Positions 51,441 through 64,000 of a stretch of DNA of 64,000 nt are shown one piece after another. Positions within the stretch are counted from its first letter, which is position 1; each line of letters opens with the position of its first letter. The position numbers and the translations under genes are program-made. Origin of the DNA: Boletus sp. NGJ (lineage: Eukaryota; Basidiomycota; Agaricomycetes; Boletales; Boletaceae); NCBI GenBank assembly GCA_019096195.1, contig JAGTXK010000239.1, forward strand, positions 806,001 to 870,000, given 5' to 3'. Under the pieces are notes generated by a model. The model was not told the DNA's origin, ran no database searches, and saw nothing but the letters and a program-made list of their open reading frames with translations.

Positions 51441-52552
51441 GGGAGGTGGGATGTGAGAGCGTGTGGGTGGAGCAGTCGAGGTGCGTATGGGGTAGGTCCT
51501 CTGATAGATGCTGTGAAACCATTTCTTGTCGCAGAGATTGTAGTCATTACATGCAAACGGGACGCCTCGAACACATGTCTGATTGCACGAAACTGAGTGA
51601 AGATGGATGACCGCAACTATCGCGCTGATATGGACTTGTTCGATGCAGATGAATGTACGTGTCGGTCCAGGCGTGTGTCACGTGCTACATAGTCACCACT
51701 AGTAGTACTTCGCGGGTGGGAACAAGGACACTTGCAATACCTTTGTGCGCAAGAAGCAGTACTGACTAGAACTTCAATGAAGAACCGCCGCTAAGGATGC
51801 AGCAGGTGTCCGATCGCTATGTATACGCCACGACGTCGTCGCGGCGAACCAAATCAAGCTTCGCTGCCTCTTGGTCTGGTTCTCGAGAAAACGGACATCG
51901 CAAACGGCTTTCGAGACGTTCGATGCGACGACCTCAGTGACCGGCGAGAGCATATATCGCTATGACTGCATCGATATACAGGTTACATTCACGAGATGGG
52001 CCAGTACCGCGTTGTATCTTGAAGAGATTGTATCGGTGTCAATGGATACGTATCACTCCCGTGTTTATCAACAGCAGCTCCGTTATTGGGACCGTCACGA
52101 CATCCACTGCCACCCTGGCTCTCTGCTCCTAGTACTCGCTGAAGGCCTGACGCCGCGCCGCCGCACTGGGAAATGTGGAGATAAGATGAATACCGCGCGC
52201 CGCTGTACGATAGCGGTCCATGGCCTAGTAGGTGTATTCACCTGGACCGTCGCGGCCGCGGCGCGTACTGCTCTTCCCGGTGCCGCCCCGACCCTTCTCA
52301 GCTCCTACCGGCCCTAACCCCCTGAAGCTAAAGGCCTGGCTGGGAAATGGACACCGACGTGGGAGCGCGCTCAATACCGACAACAGCATGGATCACAGAT
52401 CCAAGTGCAGCGGGGTTTGAAAAGTGAATGCGAACCGGCGTTGGAGCCCTTCCGACAACCGTGCGCGACGGTCTGCTCTACTTGTGATCGGAATCCTTTT
52501 GTCAACCGAGTTCGGACAAACCGTCTGTCCCGACCGCTCCCGTGTTTGGGTT
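51441..52552. other. Region without a recognisable gene
   Basis: A plus frame at 51871-52317 has no family resemblance or splice partners. The remainder is the 3' flank of USO1. Confidence 0.45.
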
Positions 52553-53275
52553 AGACCGTTTTTTGGGTACGGGGACCTAAGGTATGCCAATCAGAAGCGG
52601 CTGCGATCCACGAGACGTAACCTCCCCGTACGCGTAGACCCGTTCATTTCAGCTGCTCCACAGATGTCGGATAGATAGCGCTCACCTGACTTGGATGAAT
52701 CACACCACCCTTAAATTCACTGACACATCAAAGCTACTGACCATTCAAAGTGCTGTTCCTATCGATTAGAATCGTTCAGACGCGGTCAGTGCTTTGTCTC
52801 GAACGTATTCATTTACTTGTGTTGATTTTTGCAGTAGTTTGGTTAGGCCGTTTTTTTTTTTTGGGACCTTGAGGTATGTTAATCATAATTTAAAGGGGTG
52901 CGATTCTCGGGCCGTAACCTCCCCGTACGGCATAGACCCGTTCAGTTCAGCTGCTCCACAGACGAGTCGGATAGATAGTGTTCGCCTGGGGGTGCTAACT
53001 TGGATGAGTTACACTTTCCTTAAAATCAATGACACCTCAAACTCATTAACCATTCGAAGTGCTGGGTACGGGGACCTTGAGGTGTACCAATCAGAAGGTT
53101 GCGATCCACGAGACGTAACCTTCACAGCGTAGACCCGTTCATTTCAGCTGCTCGACAGATGTCGGATAGATAGTCTTAACGTTACCAGTGCTGTTCCCAT
53201 CAGTCAGAATCGTCCAGACGCGGTCAGTGCTTTTGCTCCAAACCAGATTTACTTATTTTGGTTTTCGCAGTAGAG
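52553..53275. repeat. Degenerate three-copy tandem repeat with CCAAT motif
   Basis: Core copies at about 52553-52700, 52846-53010 and 53065-53190 share 'ggggacct-aggt-tgccaatcagaag', 'gcgatccacgagacgtaacct', 'gtagacccgttcatttcagctgctc-acagatg' and 'tcggatagatag'. A second module ('agaatcgt-cagacgcggtcagtgctt') recurs at 52765 and 53205. Copy 2 is the most diverged and lacks the CCAAT word. Confidence 0.8.
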
Positions 53276-53298
53276 TACCCACGAAAAAAAAAATACTG

Positions 53299-55220
53299 AA
53301 TCAACGATCCAAGCTCGCTCGAACCATGGCGCTAGTATAACTAATCTCAAAGGACAGATATCAAAGGTACAGAGTCTCCGCGAAAGCAAATATAAAATAA
53401 GTATATACAGAGCGTTGATCCACATCCGCGGCGACTGCAAAGGTTTCCATGCTAGAAAATAAAATAAAATAAAAGAAGGACCATAGATGGACGACGTCCG
53501 TGCGCAGTGTTCACGAATCACACCGCCTGCCCGATGGGGACCTGCGTCCACGCATCCCACCACGCCATCCGCTGGCTCTCATCCCCGAATCCTTCCAACA
53601 ACTGGATCACGCGCCATACATCTCCCCAATCACTCCCGAGCCCAAGACTGACGCGCACCACACCCAACTCCCGCCCGAGGTCCGACTCGAGATCCCTGAG
53701 CGTCGCACCGTCGCACAGGCCATCCATGACGTTTTCAATCCCGAGGAGCGCCGAGGCACCTCCGGGATTGCACATGCAGCCCGTGCGCAATGAGATGTTG
53801 TGCATCGTGGCGACGTGTTCAATAAACGTGTTCGGGAGCATGTCGCCTCTCGGCTGTTGACAGGTGGGTATGACATGCATGATCGTGTTTCAGAATCTTA
53901 CTCACGGAGAGGATCACGAAAGAGACAGTCGACCCGGTGTCAGACTGTTCGCCAACCGATTTTAGACGCCGCGAGGGCAGCTTCGAGAGGATCTTGACCA
54001 CAGGCATCCCGTTTGTGTCGTGGCGCAGCACAGCCATACACGATGTGAGGAAATGCATCAAACACGATAAGCGGAGCGGAAGGAATGGGAGGTAAGCAGA
54101 GAGAAATCGGAGGCCGTCAGTGACCGCCGATAGGGTTAGGTAGTTGACTGTTCCATCCTGCGCATACGCTCAGCTGATTCAAGGTACATGGCTTCAGGGA
54201 AAGTTGATACCTCAAACTGTTCATGCAGCTTCACCGCCCTCGTAACCAGCGTCCCCGGAACCTGGACAACATCCACTGTGCCGCCAGCAAACCATGGCCG
54301 CTTCAACATAGCCAGAAAGCTCTCTTTGACGATCAGCGCTCCGACACCAGTAGGATATCCGAACATTTTGTAAAAACTGACAGCCATTGCATCGACAGGG
54401 GTTTCAGTCAGCGAGATCACAGAGGTAGGTGCCAAGGCAGCCGCATCCAGTAGAGTGTAGTATCCGAGAGACGATGCGTAGCGGAGGATTGAGAGCGGAT
54501 TTTTGGAGTTGGAAATATTTGACTGGCCGGTGAGTGCGAAGAGTGAGAGTGTGGACGAAGAATTCGGACGGCTGCTTCGAAGGACATCCTATAGGCGACT
54601 AGGTTCAGTGAGGGAACGGTGCGCATATACGCAGGCGAGATGGCGCGACGGATCTATCTTACCTTTGCAATCGACGGTTCAAAGCCTCCGGTAGGTGTTG
54701 AAGGGATATAATGTACCTTGGCACCTCCTCGCACTGCGAATTCGCGAATCCCATGCACGCTGTTGTGGGAATCGGTTCCGAGAACAAAAGAACCATCCTC
54801 TCGAAATGGAAATGCCTCTCCGATAAGTTTAAGCGCTCCCGTCGCGTTTGCGGTAAAGATGACAGTGTAACCCCTTGGCGCTTGAAAGGATGACAGCACC
54901 ATGTCCCTGGCTTCGTCTGCGCATGCCGAGGACAGTCTCGAACTACAGTGGGACCAAATGAGAACGCATAGACTGGGAGATATCGATGGGCGGGAGAGAG
55001 GGGGAGATGGTATAGAGATACGAGGGGTGGAGAAAAGATGCACGGGCAGGGGCCGCCATCATAGCGGCATTAATATTTCTCGCAAAGGCTTTCGTTTGAG
55101 GGGTGAGATCTTAGAGCGGTGCGAGAGATGGGAATGAGGGGACTGATGACATTTCTCTGGCGTCGATCGTCCCAGGCAGATATGCAGGAGTGTTTGTTGC
55201 CCATGTGCGGGGCAGGAAAG
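53299..55220 (-). repeat. Left arm of a large inverted repeat
   Basis: Reverse complement of about 61758-64000. From 53299 to about 54942 the match is nearly perfect and free of indels; from there to about 55220 similarity drops and small indels appear. One block present in the right arm (about 62057-62323) is missing here. Confidence 0.95.
53518..55059 (-). CDS. Exon-deleted copy of the MOCOS-like class V aminotransferase
   Basis: Predicted exons: 55059-55022, then from 54942 down to 53518 the same four exons as the right-arm gene with identical spacing (1425 nt in both). Exon 2 of the right-arm copy (248 nt, residues 17-99) is absent; its flanking introns are fused into one of 79 nt (54943-55021, donor gtatct, acceptor ctgtag). 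A separate 10-nt loss in exon 1 moves the donor phase so that exon 1 still joins exon 3 in frame. The result is an open 427-aa frame that keeps the PLP-lysine block S-F-Y-K-M-F-G and the R-T-G-C-M-C-N-P-G cysteine loop. It lacks the N-terminal Y-M-G-G-A and G-N-T-H-S-V-S-N blocks. Probably inactive as an enzyme, though still translatable; it may equally be a pseudogene. Confidence 0.75.
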
Positions 55221-55620
55221 ACGGAGACAATCAACAATTAATGAGTGGCAAGTCGAAATATCACGTCGTATGCAGGGCGGTGCACGAGCTTGAATCCAAC
55301 ACTCCCCTTCAAGCTGTGCGTAGCCCAAGTTCGCTGGCGAAATGCTTGACTTTCGGCGATGGAAGTGCTTTTGTAAACACGTCCGCGAGCATATCGTCGG
55401 TGGGGCAAAAAATCAGGTGCATCTTCCCTTCGTCGATTACCCAACGAATGAAGTGGAAATGAATGTCGATGTGTTTCGTACGCGCGTGATATTGGTGATC
55501 GACCCAGTGAGAACTTGCCATGTTCAGGTGTGCCCGGGCATGAGGACACATGTTTTTGTGCCTGCTCCATACGTTGTCATGAGTAGGCAGATCTTACGAA
55601 CAGAATCATAATGTTTTCCA
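55215..55620 (-). mobile_element. Ty1/copia LTR-retrotransposon fossil, 3' end only
   Basis: On the minus strand the end of the RNase H domain is recognisable (R-T-K-H-I-D-I-H-F-H-F-I-R and D-M-L-A-D-V-F-T-K-A-L-P), followed by a purine-rich tract and a TGTTGGATTC start typical of a copia 3' LTR. Broken: only the last few hundred bases survive, and the LTR runs directly into the left arm of the inverted repeat. Age is hard to judge from so short a piece. Confidence 0.8.
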
Positions 55621-55787
55621 TGCTATGACATGACTGAGCCTGTTCTGAGATGCAAATGACATGATATGGCATAAATGAGCAGGTCACGACATATCTTTAT
55701 TACGGACTTGCTGAATAGAAATTGAACAGTATGATTGAGTATTAGTATTTGCCATTCATGCGCAGCCATATACAGGACCGACAGTAT

Positions 55788-56927
55788 CTAGTATGGTAGC
55801 GGCGCAGATAATCCATTGAAGAGACCCGTGCTCAAGGGCGGCAATTTGAACGGAGGTAGCGTAAACGTACCAGCGACAAGCGGGGGATGCAAGATCTCCC
55901 ACAAATCGCCGCTACAATCACCAAAGTGATCACAACACATCGGCGTCGGCGTTTCAGGTGCATCCTTGATAAGACTCGAATAGGCCGAGGGGAAAGAGGG
56001 GAGTCGGAAGGTGAGGTTGTAGTCTGGGGGATGCGCAGAGCCGTGTGGCTGCGTCGTGAAGGGATCGTCAGGTGTCGTTTTTCGTTCGGATTTAGTAGTA
56101 GACAGAACGTTAGCAGGATGATTGATGTTGTTAGATGGGCCAAACGGTGTTCTCGACGGCGGCCGTTGGGTTGAGAGAGGTAAAGGTTTTGCGTGCTTGG
56201 CGTCAACGGACGTGACGAGGATCATTGGAACGACGTTTTGGTCGTGAGGCCAAAGCTTTGGTTTTTGTGCATCCCTGTCTGAGAGTACGCGACGTGAAGA
56301 CGTCTCCGGGTGGACGGTTCGTTGCGGAGACACGTTTGGGCTTTTCAGGCACACACCCATGGCGATGTCACGTGATGAGCTCTCTGTGAGGAGTGCAGCG
56401 TGATCCGGACTCGCATCTCCTAAACTCAGTCGGCGCAAGTGTTGTTCCAATCGTTCGACCAGATAGTCTTTCGTTGACGCCGAGCGTAGCTGGAACACGG
56501 AGGGAGATGTAGGGAATGCTGGTGCGGGATTTGGTGAGAAATGCCGTCCGTCAGGGGGAGTGCCTTTGAGACCAGAGCTTGAGGCCTTGCTCATTCCGGA
56601 TGAGCAATCTTCCTCCAGGACGCTTGCAGCATCGGAATGGTAGCATGAAGCATGAAGAGACGGTGACGTGCAAGGGTGAGGTGGGGGGGATTGTGCAGGT
56701 GAGGAGTCGTGGTCAGCAAAGGGCAGAGGCAAGCTGCGTGAGTGAGTCAAAGAAGATCGATGAGAAACGTCTCTGCGTAATCTCCGGCGTCGCAAGGACT
56801 TGAATATATCCGTCAGTTTCACATGTGTGGCATCACGAAAACGATGACGGCCGGTAACCTTGCCCTCATGATAGTCGCCAGGCATGTCTTTGGTTTTTCT
56901 AAAGTGAAAGGAAGACGAATGGGGCAT
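55788..56927 (-). CDS. Single-exon unknown protein, Ser/Pro-rich
   Basis: A 379-codon frame from ATG 56927, unusual here for having no intron. The protein is Ser/Pro/His-rich and probably disordered. One possible structured part is near residues 155-175 (S-T-K-D-Y-L-V-E-R-L-E-Q-H-L-R-R-L). The end has C-C-D-H-F-G-D-C-S-G-D-L-W-E, a small Cys/His cluster. No domain is recognised. Long uninterrupted length in a GC-moderate region favours a real gene. It lies inside the 6.5-kb spacer of the inverted repeat. Confidence 0.6.
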   Translation of the reverse strand: MPHSSSFHFRKTKDMPGDYHEGKVTGRHRFRDATHVKLTDIFKSLRRRRLRRDVSHRSSLTHSRSLPLPFADHDSSPAQSPPPHPCTSPSLHASCYHSDAASVLEEDCSSGMSKASSSGLKGTPPDGRHFSPNPAPAFPTSPSVFQLRSASTKDYLVERLEQHLRRLSLGDASPDHAALLTESSSRDIAMGVCLKSPNVSPQRTVHPETSSRRVLSDRDAQKPKLWPHDQNVVPMILVTSVDAKHAKPLPLSTQRPPSRTPFGPSNNINHPANVLSTTKSERKTTPDDPFTTQPHGSAHPPDYNLTFRLPSFPSAYSSLIKDAPETPTPMCCDHFGDCSGDLWEILHPPLVAGTFTLPPFKLPPLSTGLFNGLSAPLPY

Positions 56928-57973
56928 GTCTGAGCAGGGAGAAGTTCTGAAAGAGTGGCGGGGGAAACCAGTTCAATTTGTGATCTATTAGTATATCCAC
57001 AATTCTAAACCAGACCGCAGCCAAACACTTGTAGATGAAATTACACATCTGTCCATGTGACAGTGTAAAGGGCGTGGCTAGCTCATAATACTGGACGGCG
57101 CTGATATTCACTATATGTGATCTGCTATGTTCCTAATATGGCAATTGTGTGGGTGTAGTGGCTGCTTCTGACCACTTCTCGTTACCCCTCAACGTGTCCG
57201 TCCGCTCTGTCGTCCCAGTTGGAACACAAAACCAATCACCGAGTCAACGGCGGGTGGTGGCAGCTGAGGGTGGTCCCCATGTCAAGACGAATGGTGCCCT
57301 TTCCTCACTTGGACTTCCGAACCCCCCTTTCTATCCCCTACGACCTGGATTCCCTTGGCGATGATGGCTAGCCACTTGGAGGTCACCGCGTAGAGGTTCA
57401 GAGCTACACCCACGTGTGGTGGATGCATGACATGTTGCCGTTCACACAGGGCAGGTCGTACTTGGCAGAACACTGTCGACGTCCCGACTTGAGGACGTGG
57501 CACTGCACTTTCGATCGGTGATGAAAACGTCCCGTGAAAGCTCTGTCCAACGCGCTGGCGACGACACAGGTCGATTTGGTAGCACCCAATCTCAGAAAGC
57601 CCCGCACGGTTATCCTCGTGATGAGGAGATGGAACATGAGACGGGTCAAAAGGTTAGACCGGGGAGAATAGCGGCGTGGTTCGCCAGCTGGCCACAGGCA
57701 CGCACCACCTCCATGTTATGAATGATATGTTCACGATCGCGGAAGGACATGACATGTGCATGAGGGTTCCTCCGGGACACGGGACCAATATATATTCCTG
57801 CACTCGGCTTAGGCGTTTCAGCGCATGTCTTTCCAATATCAACGTCAACTTGTCACGTCACAAAAAGCACCTCAAAGAATGTCAACTATTGACACAAGCA
57901 ACAAACGCCGGAGCAGGATCGAAACGGAACCTCCAGTTCGAAACCTTCCTTTCCGCCAGCGTCAAAACCCCAT
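56928..57973. other. Region without a recognisable gene
   Basis: Short frames on both strands, none with a family match. It contains the promoter of the minus-strand gene ending at 55788 and the 3' flank of the pseudouridine synthase gene. Confidence 0.45.
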
Positions 57974-60458
57974 TCACCGCCCCCACTCCCACCCCTCCTT
58001 GGCCCACTCTGGCATCTCCGTCTCAAACCGCCCCAAACTTAACTCATATTTCAGCGCATGCAAAAAGATGTAAAGCCTCTCCGGCTTGGGGTCCGGATGA
58101 AGCGGTAAATAGCATTCAGGGCAATAGAGCGTTCCCGTGGCTGGGTCCGCCTCGGGTCCGGGTGCAACGAGCGATGGGAGGCGGGAGGTGGCTTCGGGCA
58201 ATGTTAGCTGCGTTGCGCCCTCAGGTTCGAGTGGTGCGGGGGAATCGCCTTCGGAGATGAGCTGTGCACGTGCGCTGCTCTCAGATTGTGGCGGCGGCGG
58301 CGTTGGAGGGCGCTCCGCGAGGTTCTTTGTCGAGGCTGTACCTTGTCCAGAGTCCTCGGGGTCGTTCTCCGCGGGCGTCGGTTCCAGGACGCTCCTTCCA
58401 CCCCTCTTCCGTTTGTTCGGTGGCGGCAGCGGCGGTGGCTGCCGAAAGTTTTTTGGTGTCAGCGAGCCCTTGGCTCGAAAGACGACATCTCGCCACCGGC
58501 TCCAATCCTCATCTTCGTCCTAGGATGAGGGAAAGAAAAAAAAAAAGCGAAACGTAAGTGTCCATCCTCTCTCACGGGAATGGATGATGCAGAGCGAGTT
58601 CTGTGCCGTCCCGATATCGGGAGCGAACGAAAAGAACATGTGCACGACAAGCGTAAGACGAACCTTCATATTTCTCAAACGCGTGATGATCTGGACAGCC
58701 TCTGCAGAGAGGGGAACTGGAGAGCCCATGCCGATGTCGTGGCCTGTTTCTCTGGGAAGCAGTTTCTTTTGTTGCGTATACGCTTCGTTGTTTTCGTCCT
58801 TGTTTCCACTTGAGTTCGGTTTGGGGTCTATGCAGGCACCGCCGGTGGCTAATGACTCGGGGCTATCGTCATTCTTGAGGTGTTCGGGTATGGCCGGTGC
58901 GAACCGATCGGAGCTAGGTATGACATCAATACCGTTCTTTCCCAAGTTTGGTCCCTGCGCATAGACCCGAGGAGGTGAGTACATATACGAGTCGCCAAGC
59001 ATGAAAGAGAGGGCCAAGAAGTATGTGATACACTAGTAGAAATGGAATGAAAAAGGGTACACGCGATACAGCGTATTTGCCCGGTCGAATGAGAGTCGAG
59101 ATCGAAAGAGACTTACCCATATTCGCTCTTCCGAGTACACGGGATCATTAGCGATGGGATGTCCGAGGTATTGGAGGTGAACCCTTATTTGATGCGCTTT
59201 AAGGTTTCATGATGTTATGACAGTGTTGATAATACGAGAGGAGCCAATAGAAAGAAGATTTAAGATGAATGACGAGATGTACTCACAGCGACCCGTAAAA
59301 GGACGACCTAAACAGTAAAACAGAACATTGGATATAATTGATGGTGGGAATGCAAGCGGCACATACAGCGGAGGACACTCGTATCGGTATTAGCGTCATA
59401 GTGGAGCTTATTAAAAATCGTCTTGGCTAGCTGGCAGGGCATTAGCGGGAGTGAAAACGGGAGTGGTAGAGCGGTAAAAACCGTACCTTCCCCTCCGGAT
59501 GTACGATATTGAGTCCCATCTGTCTATCTACGGTCAACAATGGTTCCTCGCAAACGACCTCTTCCCTGGATAAAACCAGCAAGTCAACATATTATTATGC
59601 ACATTGAGGTCCAGGAACGAGACGCACGCGGGAAACTCCCCTTTACATCTCGCCACATATTCCTTCCTTACAGATCCATTCATGAATTCACTCGTGAGAG
59701 ATCGCGCAAGATTAGCGTTGAGCGGTAATATCATGAGACCAGAAGTGAGTCTATCCAATCTATTGATTGCTATGGGTGGCAGGCTTGCATGTGGGACCGG
59801 CGAGATGATACAGGACACGAGACTCACTGTATACTCTGTCAAAGCCGAATTCGTATCGGAGCAGCTCGACAAGACTGTGTCGGTAATATCTCCCCGATGC
59901 ATGTACAGGCTATCATAGATCCTGTTCGAGAGGCTGGTCGACAAAAATGGAGGGGGATGACATACGATACTACCAGGTTTATCGATCATGAGGAAATCCC
60001 GTTGATCATCATGGAGTATGATCTTGACCGGCGTTGCTGTGACAGGAGGTTCGTGACGATGAACGACGTTCCTTGAATGATATTGACACGAACGCTCCGC
60101 TTTTATTGGGGGCAAAATACTCACTCGATACGGTCGCCGTTCCTGACTACTGTATCCGGTTTTGCGACCTTTCCGTTGATTGTGGTGACACCTGATTCAA
60201 GAGCGTACCTCTATGTAGAAAGGTACATCGATGAAGATCGCACGGATGACAAGAGGGGAACAGCGCACCCACATAATACTCCATGCTGCGATCTCTGAAC
60301 TCTGTTGAGACGATTTCTAATATCTCCCTTCCAAGCCACCGCTCCTTTGCCATTGTCGTGTACGGGTACCAATATGGGGGCATCTTTTTGAGACCGCCAT
60401 TTCGGGTGACGGGGATGACGACTTGGGAGGGCTGGCGTTGACCGAGAGTACCAGACAT
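57974..60458 (-). CDS. RluA-type RNA pseudouridine synthase (PUS9/RIB2-like)
   Basis: ATG 60458 opens exon 1 with [15 protein letters not shown], the fungal PUS9/RIB2 signature, and [15 protein letters not shown] as part of an S4-like element. Later exons give [17 protein letters not shown], then [10 protein letters not shown] with the catalytic Asp, and [19 protein letters not shown]. The C-terminal extension ends with [11 protein letters not shown] and stops at 57974. The enzyme isomerises uridine in tRNA (position 32 in the yeast relatives). At least nine introns were placed with consistent phase. No deaminase domain like that of yeast Rib2 was seen, so it is closer to Pus9 in content. Confidence 0.9.
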
Positions 60459-61757
60459 GGATGCCGTGATGAAACGAGAGATGACGTGTCTGAACTGGTC
60501 GCGTGAGGAGAGCGTTGTCAGTGGCAGTTGCTCGCGCGACTGGAGCTTGAATGTGTGGAGGTTCGCCAGGACGACCTGTCGTTTGGAAAGGACCTGGCAG
60601 CGAACACGAGTGAGTACTAGGAAGGGGATATAGAAATAAATAAAAACCGACATAAAACAAACGACAGGAACGATTGCAGGTATCTTTGATGGGCGTTATT
60701 TTGGAAAGCGGTTTTGAGTGGCTGTGTCATCAACTAAAGGAACCGAATGCAGAGCTATCTAATGAAGATTAGGCTTTATTTCATGTTCAATGCGCCACAT
60801 CAGCAGCGGCTTTTGATGCAATACAGTACTTAGATAACATGCACCAAGGTCATCTTGGCCTTAACTCTTTTTAGTGTACAAAATGAACGCGAGAAACCGC
60901 CCGAAACACTAACAAGTACCGGTGCTGGGAGCATAGCTATGAATGGCACCGCCACACCCGCCGTGGAGGACCTTCCCCGCGTGGGGGAATTGGATGCTTG
61001 TGCAGCCATATCGAATGGCATTTTGGCAAACCTTTGCATCCGTGAATCCCATCGCCGTGGTCCTGGTGGCGAGCCCGTGGAAGCCGTATGCACGATGCTA
61101 TGATCACTGATGTACGTATGGCACACTCCAATCACTGCCGTCACTGTCAGAGCTGCTGTTCGTTGGCCGGAAAGGTGAATCCTGTACACACACTAGACTA
61201 ACCAGGTGTAGTGGAAGAGCCACTCCGACGGCGCGGCGGTGGCAGCAAAATCTCACCGGCCATGTACTTACATATCACCACTGACCTAACCGTATGTCAG
61301 GAGTGCTGTGGCACGTGGGAACGGCGATGAATAAGTGACCATTCATAATTATTCTGCGACGTCTCATCAGCGGTGATTTGGTATACGTGTACTCCCACTA
61401 TTCTACTCTTGGTCAAGCAAATGAAGCATCGTGTGACAAAATAACGACCGAATGATTCCTTTTCGTCCGTTTCGGCAATGTCTATCCATCAGGTACGCGG
61501 ATTTCAGCTGTCCAAGATACCGACCGATGCAGTGGAGAGTCGCCTCCGCACGAATCTGCAGATACATAACAAAAAGACGAAGCTGTCCAACAAAATGTAC
61601 GTGCGAACTGATGCTTATGTCGCAGACCGACTGGTGGGATCTGTGTTCGAGAGGATTGCCCAATAAATGCAATATTACCGTTTGCGCGGCACCGACCTGT
61701 ACTCCAAGACCTATAAACGTATGCCATCCTGGGAGGGCCTACAGCGCACCAGTGTAG
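60459..61757. other. Intergenic stretch up to the right arm
   Basis: No recognisable gene; short frames only. It should contain the pseudouridine-synthase promoter. Confidence 0.5.
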
Positions 61758-64000
61758 CTTCTTTTCTGCCCGCCATGGGTAACAAACACTCCTGCATATC
61801 TGCCCGGGACGATCGACGCCAGAGAAATGTCATCAGTCCCCCCACTCCCATCTCTCGCACCGCTCTAAAATCCTACAGATCTCACCCTTCCCTCAGCAAA
61901 TCCTTCCCCTCAAACGACAGCCTTTGCGAGAAATATCAATACCGCCAAGATGGCGACCCCTGCCCATGTAGCTTTCCTCCACCCCTTCCGCTCCCTCGTA
62001 TCTCTATACCATCCCCCCCTCTCTCCCGCCCATCACTGTCTGCATATATCTCCCAGGCACAATTGAGACCACTCGGGGAAGAAGCACTCCTTGCTTACTC
62101 AGCTTTCTTACAAACGTACCCAGAGTACCGAAGTACCTGGATCATAGATACACTACGGCGAACTGACTTCGCTAGGCTCGACCGCGTAGGGGAAACCTAT
62201 GTCGACTATATGGGTGGTGCCCAACATCCCGAATGCCTCGTCCACGTCCATAGTGACTTTCTGACACAAAGCATCATGGGTAACACCCATTCAGTCAGTA
62301 ATAGGTAAGATTGCATTCTCGCAGAGTCTATGCGTTCTCATTTGGTCCCACTGTAGTTCGAGACTGTCCTCGGCATGCGCAGACGAAGCCAGGGACATGG
62401 TGCTGTCATCCTTTCAAGCGCCAAGGGGTTACACTGTCATCTTTACCGCAAACGCGACGGGAGCGCTTAAACTTATCGGAGAGGCATTTCCATTTCGAGA
62501 GGATGGTTCTTTTGTTCTCGGAACCGATTCCCACAACAGCGTGCATGGGATTCGCGAATTCGCAGTGCGAGGAGGTGCCAAGGTACATTATATCCCTTCA
62601 ACACCTACCGGAGGCTTTGAACCGTCGATTGCAAAGGTAAGATAGATCCGTCGCGCCATCTCGCCTGCGTATATGCGCACCGTTCCCTCACTGAACCTAG
62701 TCGCCTATAGGATGTCCTTCGAAGCAGCCGTCCGAATTCTTCGTCCACACTCTCACTCTTCGCACTCACCGGCCAGTCAAATATTTCCAACTCCAAAAAT
62801 CCCCTCTCAATCCTCCGCTACGCATCGTCTCTCGGATACTACACTCTACTGGATGCGGCTGCCTTGGCACCTACCTCTGTGATCTCGCTGACTGAAACCC
62901 CTGTCGATGCAATGGCTGTCAGTTTTTACAAAATGTTCGGATATCCTACTGGTGTCGGAGCGCTGATCGTCAAAGAGAGCTTTCTGGCTATGTTGAAGCG
63001 GCCATGGTTTGCTGGCGGCACAGTGGATGTTGTCCAGGTTCCGGGGACGCTGGTTACGAGGGCGGTGAAGCTGCATGAACAGTTTGAGGTATCAACTTTC
63101 CCTGAAGCCATGTACCTTGAATCAGCTGAGCGTATGCGCAGGATGGAACAGTCAACTACCTAACCCTATCGGCGGTCACTGACGGCCTCCGATTTCTCTC
63201 TGCTTACCTCCCATTCCTTCCGCTCCGCTTATCGTGTTTGATGCATTTCCTCACATCGTGTATGGCTGTGCTGCGCCACGACACAAACGGGATGCCTGTG
63301 GTCAAGATCCTCTCGAAGCTGCCCTCGCGGCGTCTAAAATCGGTTGGCGAACAGTCTGACACCGGGTCGACTGTCTCTTTCGTGATCCTCTCCGTGAGTA
63401 AGATTCTGAAACACGATCATGCATGTCATACCCACCTGTCAACAGCCGAGAGGCGACATGCTCCCGAACACGTTTATTGAACACGTCGCCACGATGCACA
63501 ACATCTCATTGCGCACCGGCTGCATGTGCAATCCCGGAGGTGCCTCGGCGCTCCTCGGGATTGAAAACGTCATGGATGGCCTGTGCGACGGTGCGACGCT
63601 CAGGGATCTCGAGTCGGACCTCGGGCGGGAGTTGGGTGTGGTCCGCGTCAGTCTTGGGCTCGGGAGTGATTGGGGAGATGTATGGCGCGTGATCCAGTTG
63701 TTGGAAGGATTCGGGGATGAGAGCCAGCGGATGGCGTGGTGGGATGCGTGGACGCAGGTCCCCATCGGGCAGGCGGTGTGATTCGTGAACACTGCGCTCG
63801 GACGTCGTCCATCTATGGTCCTTCTTTTATTTTATTTTATTTTCTAGCATGGAAACCTTTGCAGTCGCCGCGGATGTGGATCAACGCTCTGTATATACTT
63901 ATTTTATATTTGCTTTCGCGGAGACTCTGTACCTTTGATATCTGTCCTTTGAGATTAGTTATACTAGCGCCATGGTTCGAGCGAGCTTGCATCGTTGATT
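61758..64000 (+). repeat. Right arm of a large inverted repeat
   Basis: Matches the reverse complement of 53299-55220. The match is still continuing at the window edge, so the full arm is longer. It carries the complete gene copy. Confidence 0.95.
61950..63781 (+). CDS. PLP-dependent class V aminotransferase, molybdenum-cofactor-sulfurase-like
   Basis: Exons 61950-61997, 62057-62304, 62357-62636, 62711-63088, 63142-63393 and 63446-63781 give 513 aa. Motifs in order: Y-V-D-Y-M-G-G-A-Q-H-P, M-G-N-T-H-S-V-S-N, F-T-A-N-A-T-G-A-L-K-L, D-S-H-N-S-V-H-G-I-R-E, S-F-Y-K-M-F-G-Y-P-T-G (Lys266, PLP Schiff base) and R-T-G-C-M-C-N-P-G (Cys428/Cys430, the mobile catalytic-cysteine loop). These match the desulfurase half of eukaryotic molybdenum-cofactor sulfurase; no MOSC domain follows. 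It probably removes sulfur from cysteine, but whether molybdenum cofactor is the acceptor is not shown. The start at 61950 is the ATG whose exon splices cleanly; an upstream in-frame stretch is likely 5'UTR. Confidence 0.88.

What the first reader, a model, noticed from the sequence alone, without database searches (positions are those of the whole stretch)
53299..64000. Large inverted duplication of a MOCOS-like gene around a 6.5-kb spacer
Two arms of about 1.9 and at least 2.2 kb face each other and carry the same gene. Convergent tails could form a long hairpin transcript or a recombination substrate that flips the spacer, which holds a tRNA-modification gene. Arms this similar so close together are usually unstable, so the event is recent or maintained. 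An assembly artefact is possible.
Basis: partly seen in the sequence, partly recalled or inferred. Interest (0 to 1): 0.8.

Follow-up and report, generated by a model that had tools for sequence, protein, structure and literature searches.

The report
Gene-converted inverted gene duplicate in fungus
A fungal enzyme gene has a truncated, mirror-image twin about 6.5 kb away, and most of the twin has been kept or made almost identical to the intact copy, most likely by ordinary copying between the two during DNA repair.

Summary
The inverted duplication is real in this assembly and extends past the window. Left arm 53063-54974 matches right arm 64236-62325 at 1907 of 1912 bases. Homology continues outward to 52318/64480 (98.8%) and inward to 55221/61760 (92%, with indels). 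The genes are divergent, not convergent: their 5' ends face the spacer, so the hairpin-transcript idea fails. The right copy reads as an intact five-exon, 591-aa class-V aminotransferase-fold protein without a MOSC domain. The left copy has lost the second half of exon 1 and has a stop in its 5' remnant, yet its exons 2-5, introns and 3' flank are almost unchanged. Identity drops sharply at the left copy's 283-bp deletion (Fisher p 1.2e-14). Best reading: an old inverted duplicate whose left copy decayed at the 5' end and was later overwritten by ectopic gene conversion. All five differences in the main tract carry the same plus-strand letter in both arms, which would fit mismatches that escaped repair, or a consensus artefact; the statistics are modest (p 0.0002 to 0.007). 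Spacer flipping is possible but untested. A member of a known kind; modest interest.

The parts
52318..52563 (-). outer end of left arm, pairs with contig positions equivalent to 64480-64237 (outside the window)
   Evidence: 240 of 243 aligned bases identical, 2 gap runs
52564..53062 (.). extra degenerate repeat units present only in the left arm
   Evidence: 47-base units at 52632, 52930 and 53127; 501 gap columns in the right arm
53063..54974 (-). homogenised tract, left arm: exons 2-5, introns 2-4 and 3' flank of the truncated gene copy
   Evidence: 1907 of 1912 identical to the right arm; exon 2-5 protein identical
54978..55221 (-). diverged 5' remnant of the left copy, with a stop codon in the frame of the right copy's exon 1
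   Evidence: 223 of 242 aligned bases identical, 5 gap runs
54974..54978 (.). deletion junction (283 bp lost: second half of exon 1 and first 20 bases of intron 1) where identity drops
   Evidence: short repeats CTCCCAG / CTCGCAG at the two ends in the right arm
55309..55593 (-). fragment that looks like the C-terminal end of a copia-type polyprotein
   Evidence: translation; resemblance recalled, no Pfam match
55788..56972 (-). open frame of 394 codons in the spacer, no Pfam family at E 0.01
57974..60700 (-). exon-split pseudouridine-synthase gene of the spacer (limits approximate)
   Evidence: PseudoU_synth_2, E 5.7e-11 for the frame 59534-60196; the frame 57974-58519 gave no Pfam match; other exons by reading only
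61760..62041 (+). inner end of right arm, first half of exon 1 of the intact copy
61775..63781 (+). intact gene copy, five exons: 61775-62304, 62357-62636, 62711-63088, 63142-63393, 63446-63781; 591 aa, Aminotran_5
   Evidence: E 1.2e-28; exon limits and start codon chosen by me, no transcript data
62325..64000 (+). homogenised tract, right arm (continues to the equivalent of 64236, homology to 64480, outside the window)

Best explanation
An older inverted segmental duplication of a MOCOS-like (class-V aminotransferase fold) gene. The left copy lost half of exon 1 and became a 5'-truncated remnant. Later, ectopic gene conversion between the two arms overwrote the left copy's 3' part, introns and 3' flank with the right copy's sequence; heteroduplex or copying stopped at the 283-bp heterology at 54974/62325. 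Shown: the arms, the orientation, the truncation, the step in identity at the heterology. Inferred: conversion as the cause, the direction right to left, and the order of events.
For: Identity is heterogeneous: 5 of 1912 mismatched in the tract against 19 of 242 plus 5 gap runs just inside it (Fisher p 1.2e-14), and the step falls at the deletion junction. The left copy is a 5' remnant with a stop, yet exons 2-5 give an identical protein, introns 2-4 (179 bases) have no mismatch and the 3' flank has 2 in 455, which selection on protein alone does not explain. The genome DNA search found no third copy (3 matches, all in these two arms; its counts are lower bounds).
Against: The outer segment (3 of 243) does not differ clearly from the tract (p 0.05), so a recent copying of the 3' part onto an old 5' remnant is also possible. 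No related genome was available to date the duplication. Without reads the central identity could be an assembly product.
Confidence: 0.62

Rival explanations
1. A recent templated copying event (break-induced or microhomology-mediated replication) copied 62325-64480 in inverted orientation and joined it beside an old diverged 5' remnant; no conversion between full-length arms.
For: Identity is high up to an abrupt outer end at 52318/64480; outer and central segments are similarly young (p 0.05).
Against: The old remnant would have to lie in just the right orientation and register, and priming from it should start copying at 62042, not 62325 (inference).
Confidence: 0.17
2. Assembly effect: two real but more different arms were collapsed or over-polished to one consensus in the central tract.
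For: All five tract differences carry the same plus-strand letter in both arms (C, T, C, C, C), as self-complementary ambiguity codes S and W flattened to one letter would give. The assembly has a near-perfect foldback palindrome at the start of contig C48, so palindromic artefacts seem to occur in it.
Against: No N or ambiguity letter in the 274 kb read; the foldback at a contig end suggests long reads (inference), which would span arms of 2 kb; an opposite-strand near-identical pair on C133 shows an ordinary spectrum, 1 of 14 mismatches self-complementary.
Confidence: 0.13
3. A purely recent inverted duplication (one event), with the inner 240 bp diverging fast.
For: Overall divergence of the outer and central parts is 8 of 2155 aligned bases.
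Against: The inner part would need about 30 times the rate of the introns, codons and flank beside it.
Confidence: 0.05
4. The arms are kept because they do something: hairpin transcript for silencing, or a switch that flips the spacer.
For: Arms are near-identical and inverted, so inversion by recombination is physically possible.
Against: The genes are divergent, so no gene-length transcript contains both arms. No data on orientation or small RNA were available.
Confidence: 0.03

Closest known systems
Inverted paralogous gene pairs of Caenorhabditis proposed to be kept alike by gene conversion (PMC1803023; parts 1 and 2 of 4 of the text read)
   Same: Inverted, divergent paralogous genes, up to 100% alike, with identity that is patchy along the genes and some decayed members
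   Different: There the two spacers quoted are 126 and 414 bp and the structure is shared by species; here the spacer is 6.5 kb with genes, one copy is truncated, and no relative was available
Human Y-chromosome palindromes with arm-to-arm conversion (PMC3723533; search listing and start of abstract only)
   Same: Inverted arms made near-identical by conversion; the title speaks of multi-kilobase tracts and rare inversions
   Different: Arm similarity there exceeds 99.9%; here 99.7% over 1.9 kb with worse edges, in a fungus, and conversion is inferred, not observed
Molybdenum cofactor sulfurase (MOCOS / ABA3 / HxB; recalled)
   Same: Class-V aminotransferase domain; alignment with SufS-type cysteine desulfurases covers the pyridoxal-lysine region (role of the lysine recalled)
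   Different: No MOSC domain in the protein, and none found in the genome

Membership tests
gene-converted inverted paralog pair | near-identical arms in opposite orientation close together | tested here: met
gene-converted inverted paralog pair | identity extends through introns and flank, not only codons | tested here: met
   no mismatch in introns 2-4 (179 bases), 2 in 455 bases of 3' flank
gene-converted inverted paralog pair | homologous edges of the duplication are older than the tract | tested here: inconclusive
   inner edge 19 of 242 (p 1.2e-14, met); outer edge 3 of 243 (p 0.05, not clearly older)
gene-converted inverted paralog pair | same structure in related species, arms more alike within than between species | not testable with these tools
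   the genome has no relatives in the collection (note)
foldback (palindromic read) assembly artefact | arms meet with almost no spacer | tested here: not met
   spacer 6538 bp (ends); C48 shows what such an artefact looks like
collapsed or over-polished repeat | true arms differ in the reads | not testable with these tools
   no reads available
molybdenum cofactor sulfurase | class-V aminotransferase (NifS-like) domain | tested here: met
molybdenum cofactor sulfurase | C-terminal MOSC domain | tested here: not met
   Aminotran_5 only; 0 matches in the genome (a domain split over exons could be missed)

The most novel reading that the evidence does not exclude
The five remaining differences are a fossil of one heteroduplex. 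If the left plus strand paired with the right plus strand, they would be four C/C and one T/T mismatches, pairs that mismatch repair can handle poorly, while the other differences in the tract were corrected. The prediction is general: converted paralog tracts should keep an excess of C/G differences of one strand polarity.
Probability: 0.2. Interest if true: 0.5.

Novelty: new member of a known kind. Interest (0 to 1): 0.27.

Why it matters
It is a clean case of an old, truncated inverted duplicate homogenised up to a heterology, useful as a test object for ectopic gene conversion in fungi. If the leftover-mismatch reading holds, the strand polarity of a single past conversion event could be read from a finished genome, and the idea can be tested on any set of converted paralogs. 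Otherwise it is ordinary genome evolution.

Tried and rejected
Hairpin transcript: rejected, the copies are divergent. Foldback artefact: rejected, see membership test. Genome-wide flattening of ambiguity codes as a cause of the odd mismatches: not seen in the one other near-identical opposite-strand pair examined, on C133, where 12 of 14 mismatches are transitions and 1 of 14 is self-complementary; a local effect stays possible.

Limits of the mismatch statistics. Tract alone: 5 of 5 self-complementary against a background of 242 of 1304 mismatches in same-strand self-matches of 274 kb (all lengths), p 0.0002. With the outer segment added (3 mismatches, all transitions): 5 of 8, p 0.007. The opposite-strand total is 39 self-complementary of 143; this includes the tract itself (5 of 5) and one simple self-palindrome at C89:600179 (13 of 27), and without these two it is 21 of 111 (19%). 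The background comes mostly from diverged, transition-rich matches and the pattern was noticed after the fact, so both p values flatter it. The three coding sites are all synonymous third positions, which speaks against random sequencing error.

Other Aminotran_5 stretches in the genome (11 stretches, 4 of them in the two arms, 7 on C22, C117 and C102) were not examined further. The tRNA that ARAGORN reports at 52829-52919 with a four-base anticodon was taken as false without a test.

Papers. Searches (inverted repeat, gene conversion, complementary transversion; 948 papers with 2 of 3, 10 listed; C-C mismatch, gene conversion, heteroduplex, post-meiotic segregation; 28 with 3 of 4, 12 listed; inverted duplication + gene conversion + basidiomycete: 1, irrelevant; palindrome, gene conversion, mismatch repair, arm-to-arm, G-C transversion: none with 4 of 5; molybdenum cofactor sulfurase + basidiomycete + paralog: none). 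PMC3758752 searched for five terms, none found. I make no claim that the leftover-mismatch idea is absent from print.

Full report
Setting. The window is C89:806001-870000 of an unnamed 32.8-Mb genome in 141 contigs. Short GT-AG introns and copia-type elements (120 RVT_2 stretches, a lower bound) point to a fungus, probably a basidiomycete; that is my reading, no call names it. The collection holds no relatives for it.

Observation. The inverted repeat is real and longer than the window shows. With the next 10 kb of the contig, BLAST of the region against itself gives 53063-54974 against 64236-62325, 1912 bases, 5 mismatches, no gap. Outward, 52318-52563 pairs with 64480-64237 (240 of 243 aligned bases alike, 2 gap runs); inward, 54978-55221 pairs with 61760-62041 (223 of 242, 5 gap runs). 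The left arm has about 500 extra bases of a degenerate repeat at 52564-53062, a repeat for which the genome search gave 5 matches, all in these two arms. The left arm lacks 283 bases. In 274 kb of this contig (200 kb at C89:600001-800000 plus the window and the next 10 kb), of 16 listed self-matches of 150 bases or more only this one exceeds 98% identity; the rest of the contig and the other contigs were not surveyed.

Genes. The right copy, plus strand, reads as five exons with GT-AG introns of 52, 74, 53 and 52 bases and a 591-residue product with one Pfam domain, Aminotran_5 (E 1.2e-28). It aligns with SufS-type cysteine desulfurases of known structure, best E 5.3e-12. It has no MOSC domain, and the genome search for MOSC found none, so 'MOCOS-like' is fair and 'MOCOS' is not shown. 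The left copy, minus strand, has exons 2-5 with an identical protein, but the deletion removed 263 of the 530 bases of exon 1 and the first 20 of intron 1, and the 5' remnant has a stop codon. Both copies point away from the spacer. The spacer holds a pseudouridine-synthase gene, a 394-codon frame without a Pfam family, and a fragment that resembles a copia polyprotein end (recalled; no Pfam match).

Explanation. Divergence changes about thirtyfold at 54974/62325, the deletion junction (Fisher p 1.2e-14). A left copy truncated as long ago as its 5' remnant suggests should have decayed along its length, introns and 3' flank included; it has not. The simplest account is that an old inverted duplicate was overwritten from the right copy by ectopic gene conversion which ended at the heterology. 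A recent templated copy of the 3' part beside an old 5' remnant is the main rival, and the outer segment (3 of 243, p 0.05 against the tract) does not separate the two.

The odd mismatches. At all five tract differences (left/right 53309/63990, 53501/63798, 53656/63643, 53782/63517, 54496/62803) the plus-strand letter is the same in both arms: C, T, C, C, C. Such self-complementary differences are 242 of 1304 mismatches in same-strand self-matches nearby, 1 of 14 in an opposite-strand pair on C133 and 1 of 22 in the flanking arm segments. Chance gives p 0.0002 for the tract, 0.007 if the outer segment with its three transitions is added. Two accounts fit. In one, these are C/C and T/T mismatches of one heteroduplex that escaped repair. 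A genome-wide yeast survey reports an enrichment of polymorphisms giving C/C or G/G mismatches among unrepaired ones and cites C/C repair as three- to fivefold less efficient at two loci; for A/A and T/T it cites both poorer repair in mitotic assays and ordinary repair in meiosis (PMC3218862, passages), so the T/T site is less well covered. In the other account, self-complementary ambiguity codes of a collapsed consensus were flattened to one letter. Neither is shown.

Verdict. Real, well defined, most likely explained by a known process; the hairpin idea does not fit the gene orientation and the flipping idea is untested.

Noticed in passing
L027 (C48:1-2600): The contig begins with a near-perfect palindrome, 1-1030 against 1199-2228 at 100%, with only a short diverged centre: looks like a foldback assembly artefact.
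   Followed up: partly
L028 and L029 (C133:31500-34500 and 71000-74000): A second inverted duplication in the genome, 99.2% over 2510 aligned columns with arms about 36 kb apart, in repeat-rich DNA; the match continues beyond the fetched stretches.
   Followed up: partly
52564-53173: Three degenerate copies of a 47-base unit; the genome search matched only these two arms, and the left arm has more of it than the right.
   Followed up: partly
G000 whole genome: No MOSC domain found in a six-frame search although a MOCOS-like gene is present in two copies; a domain split over exons could be missed.
   Followed up: no
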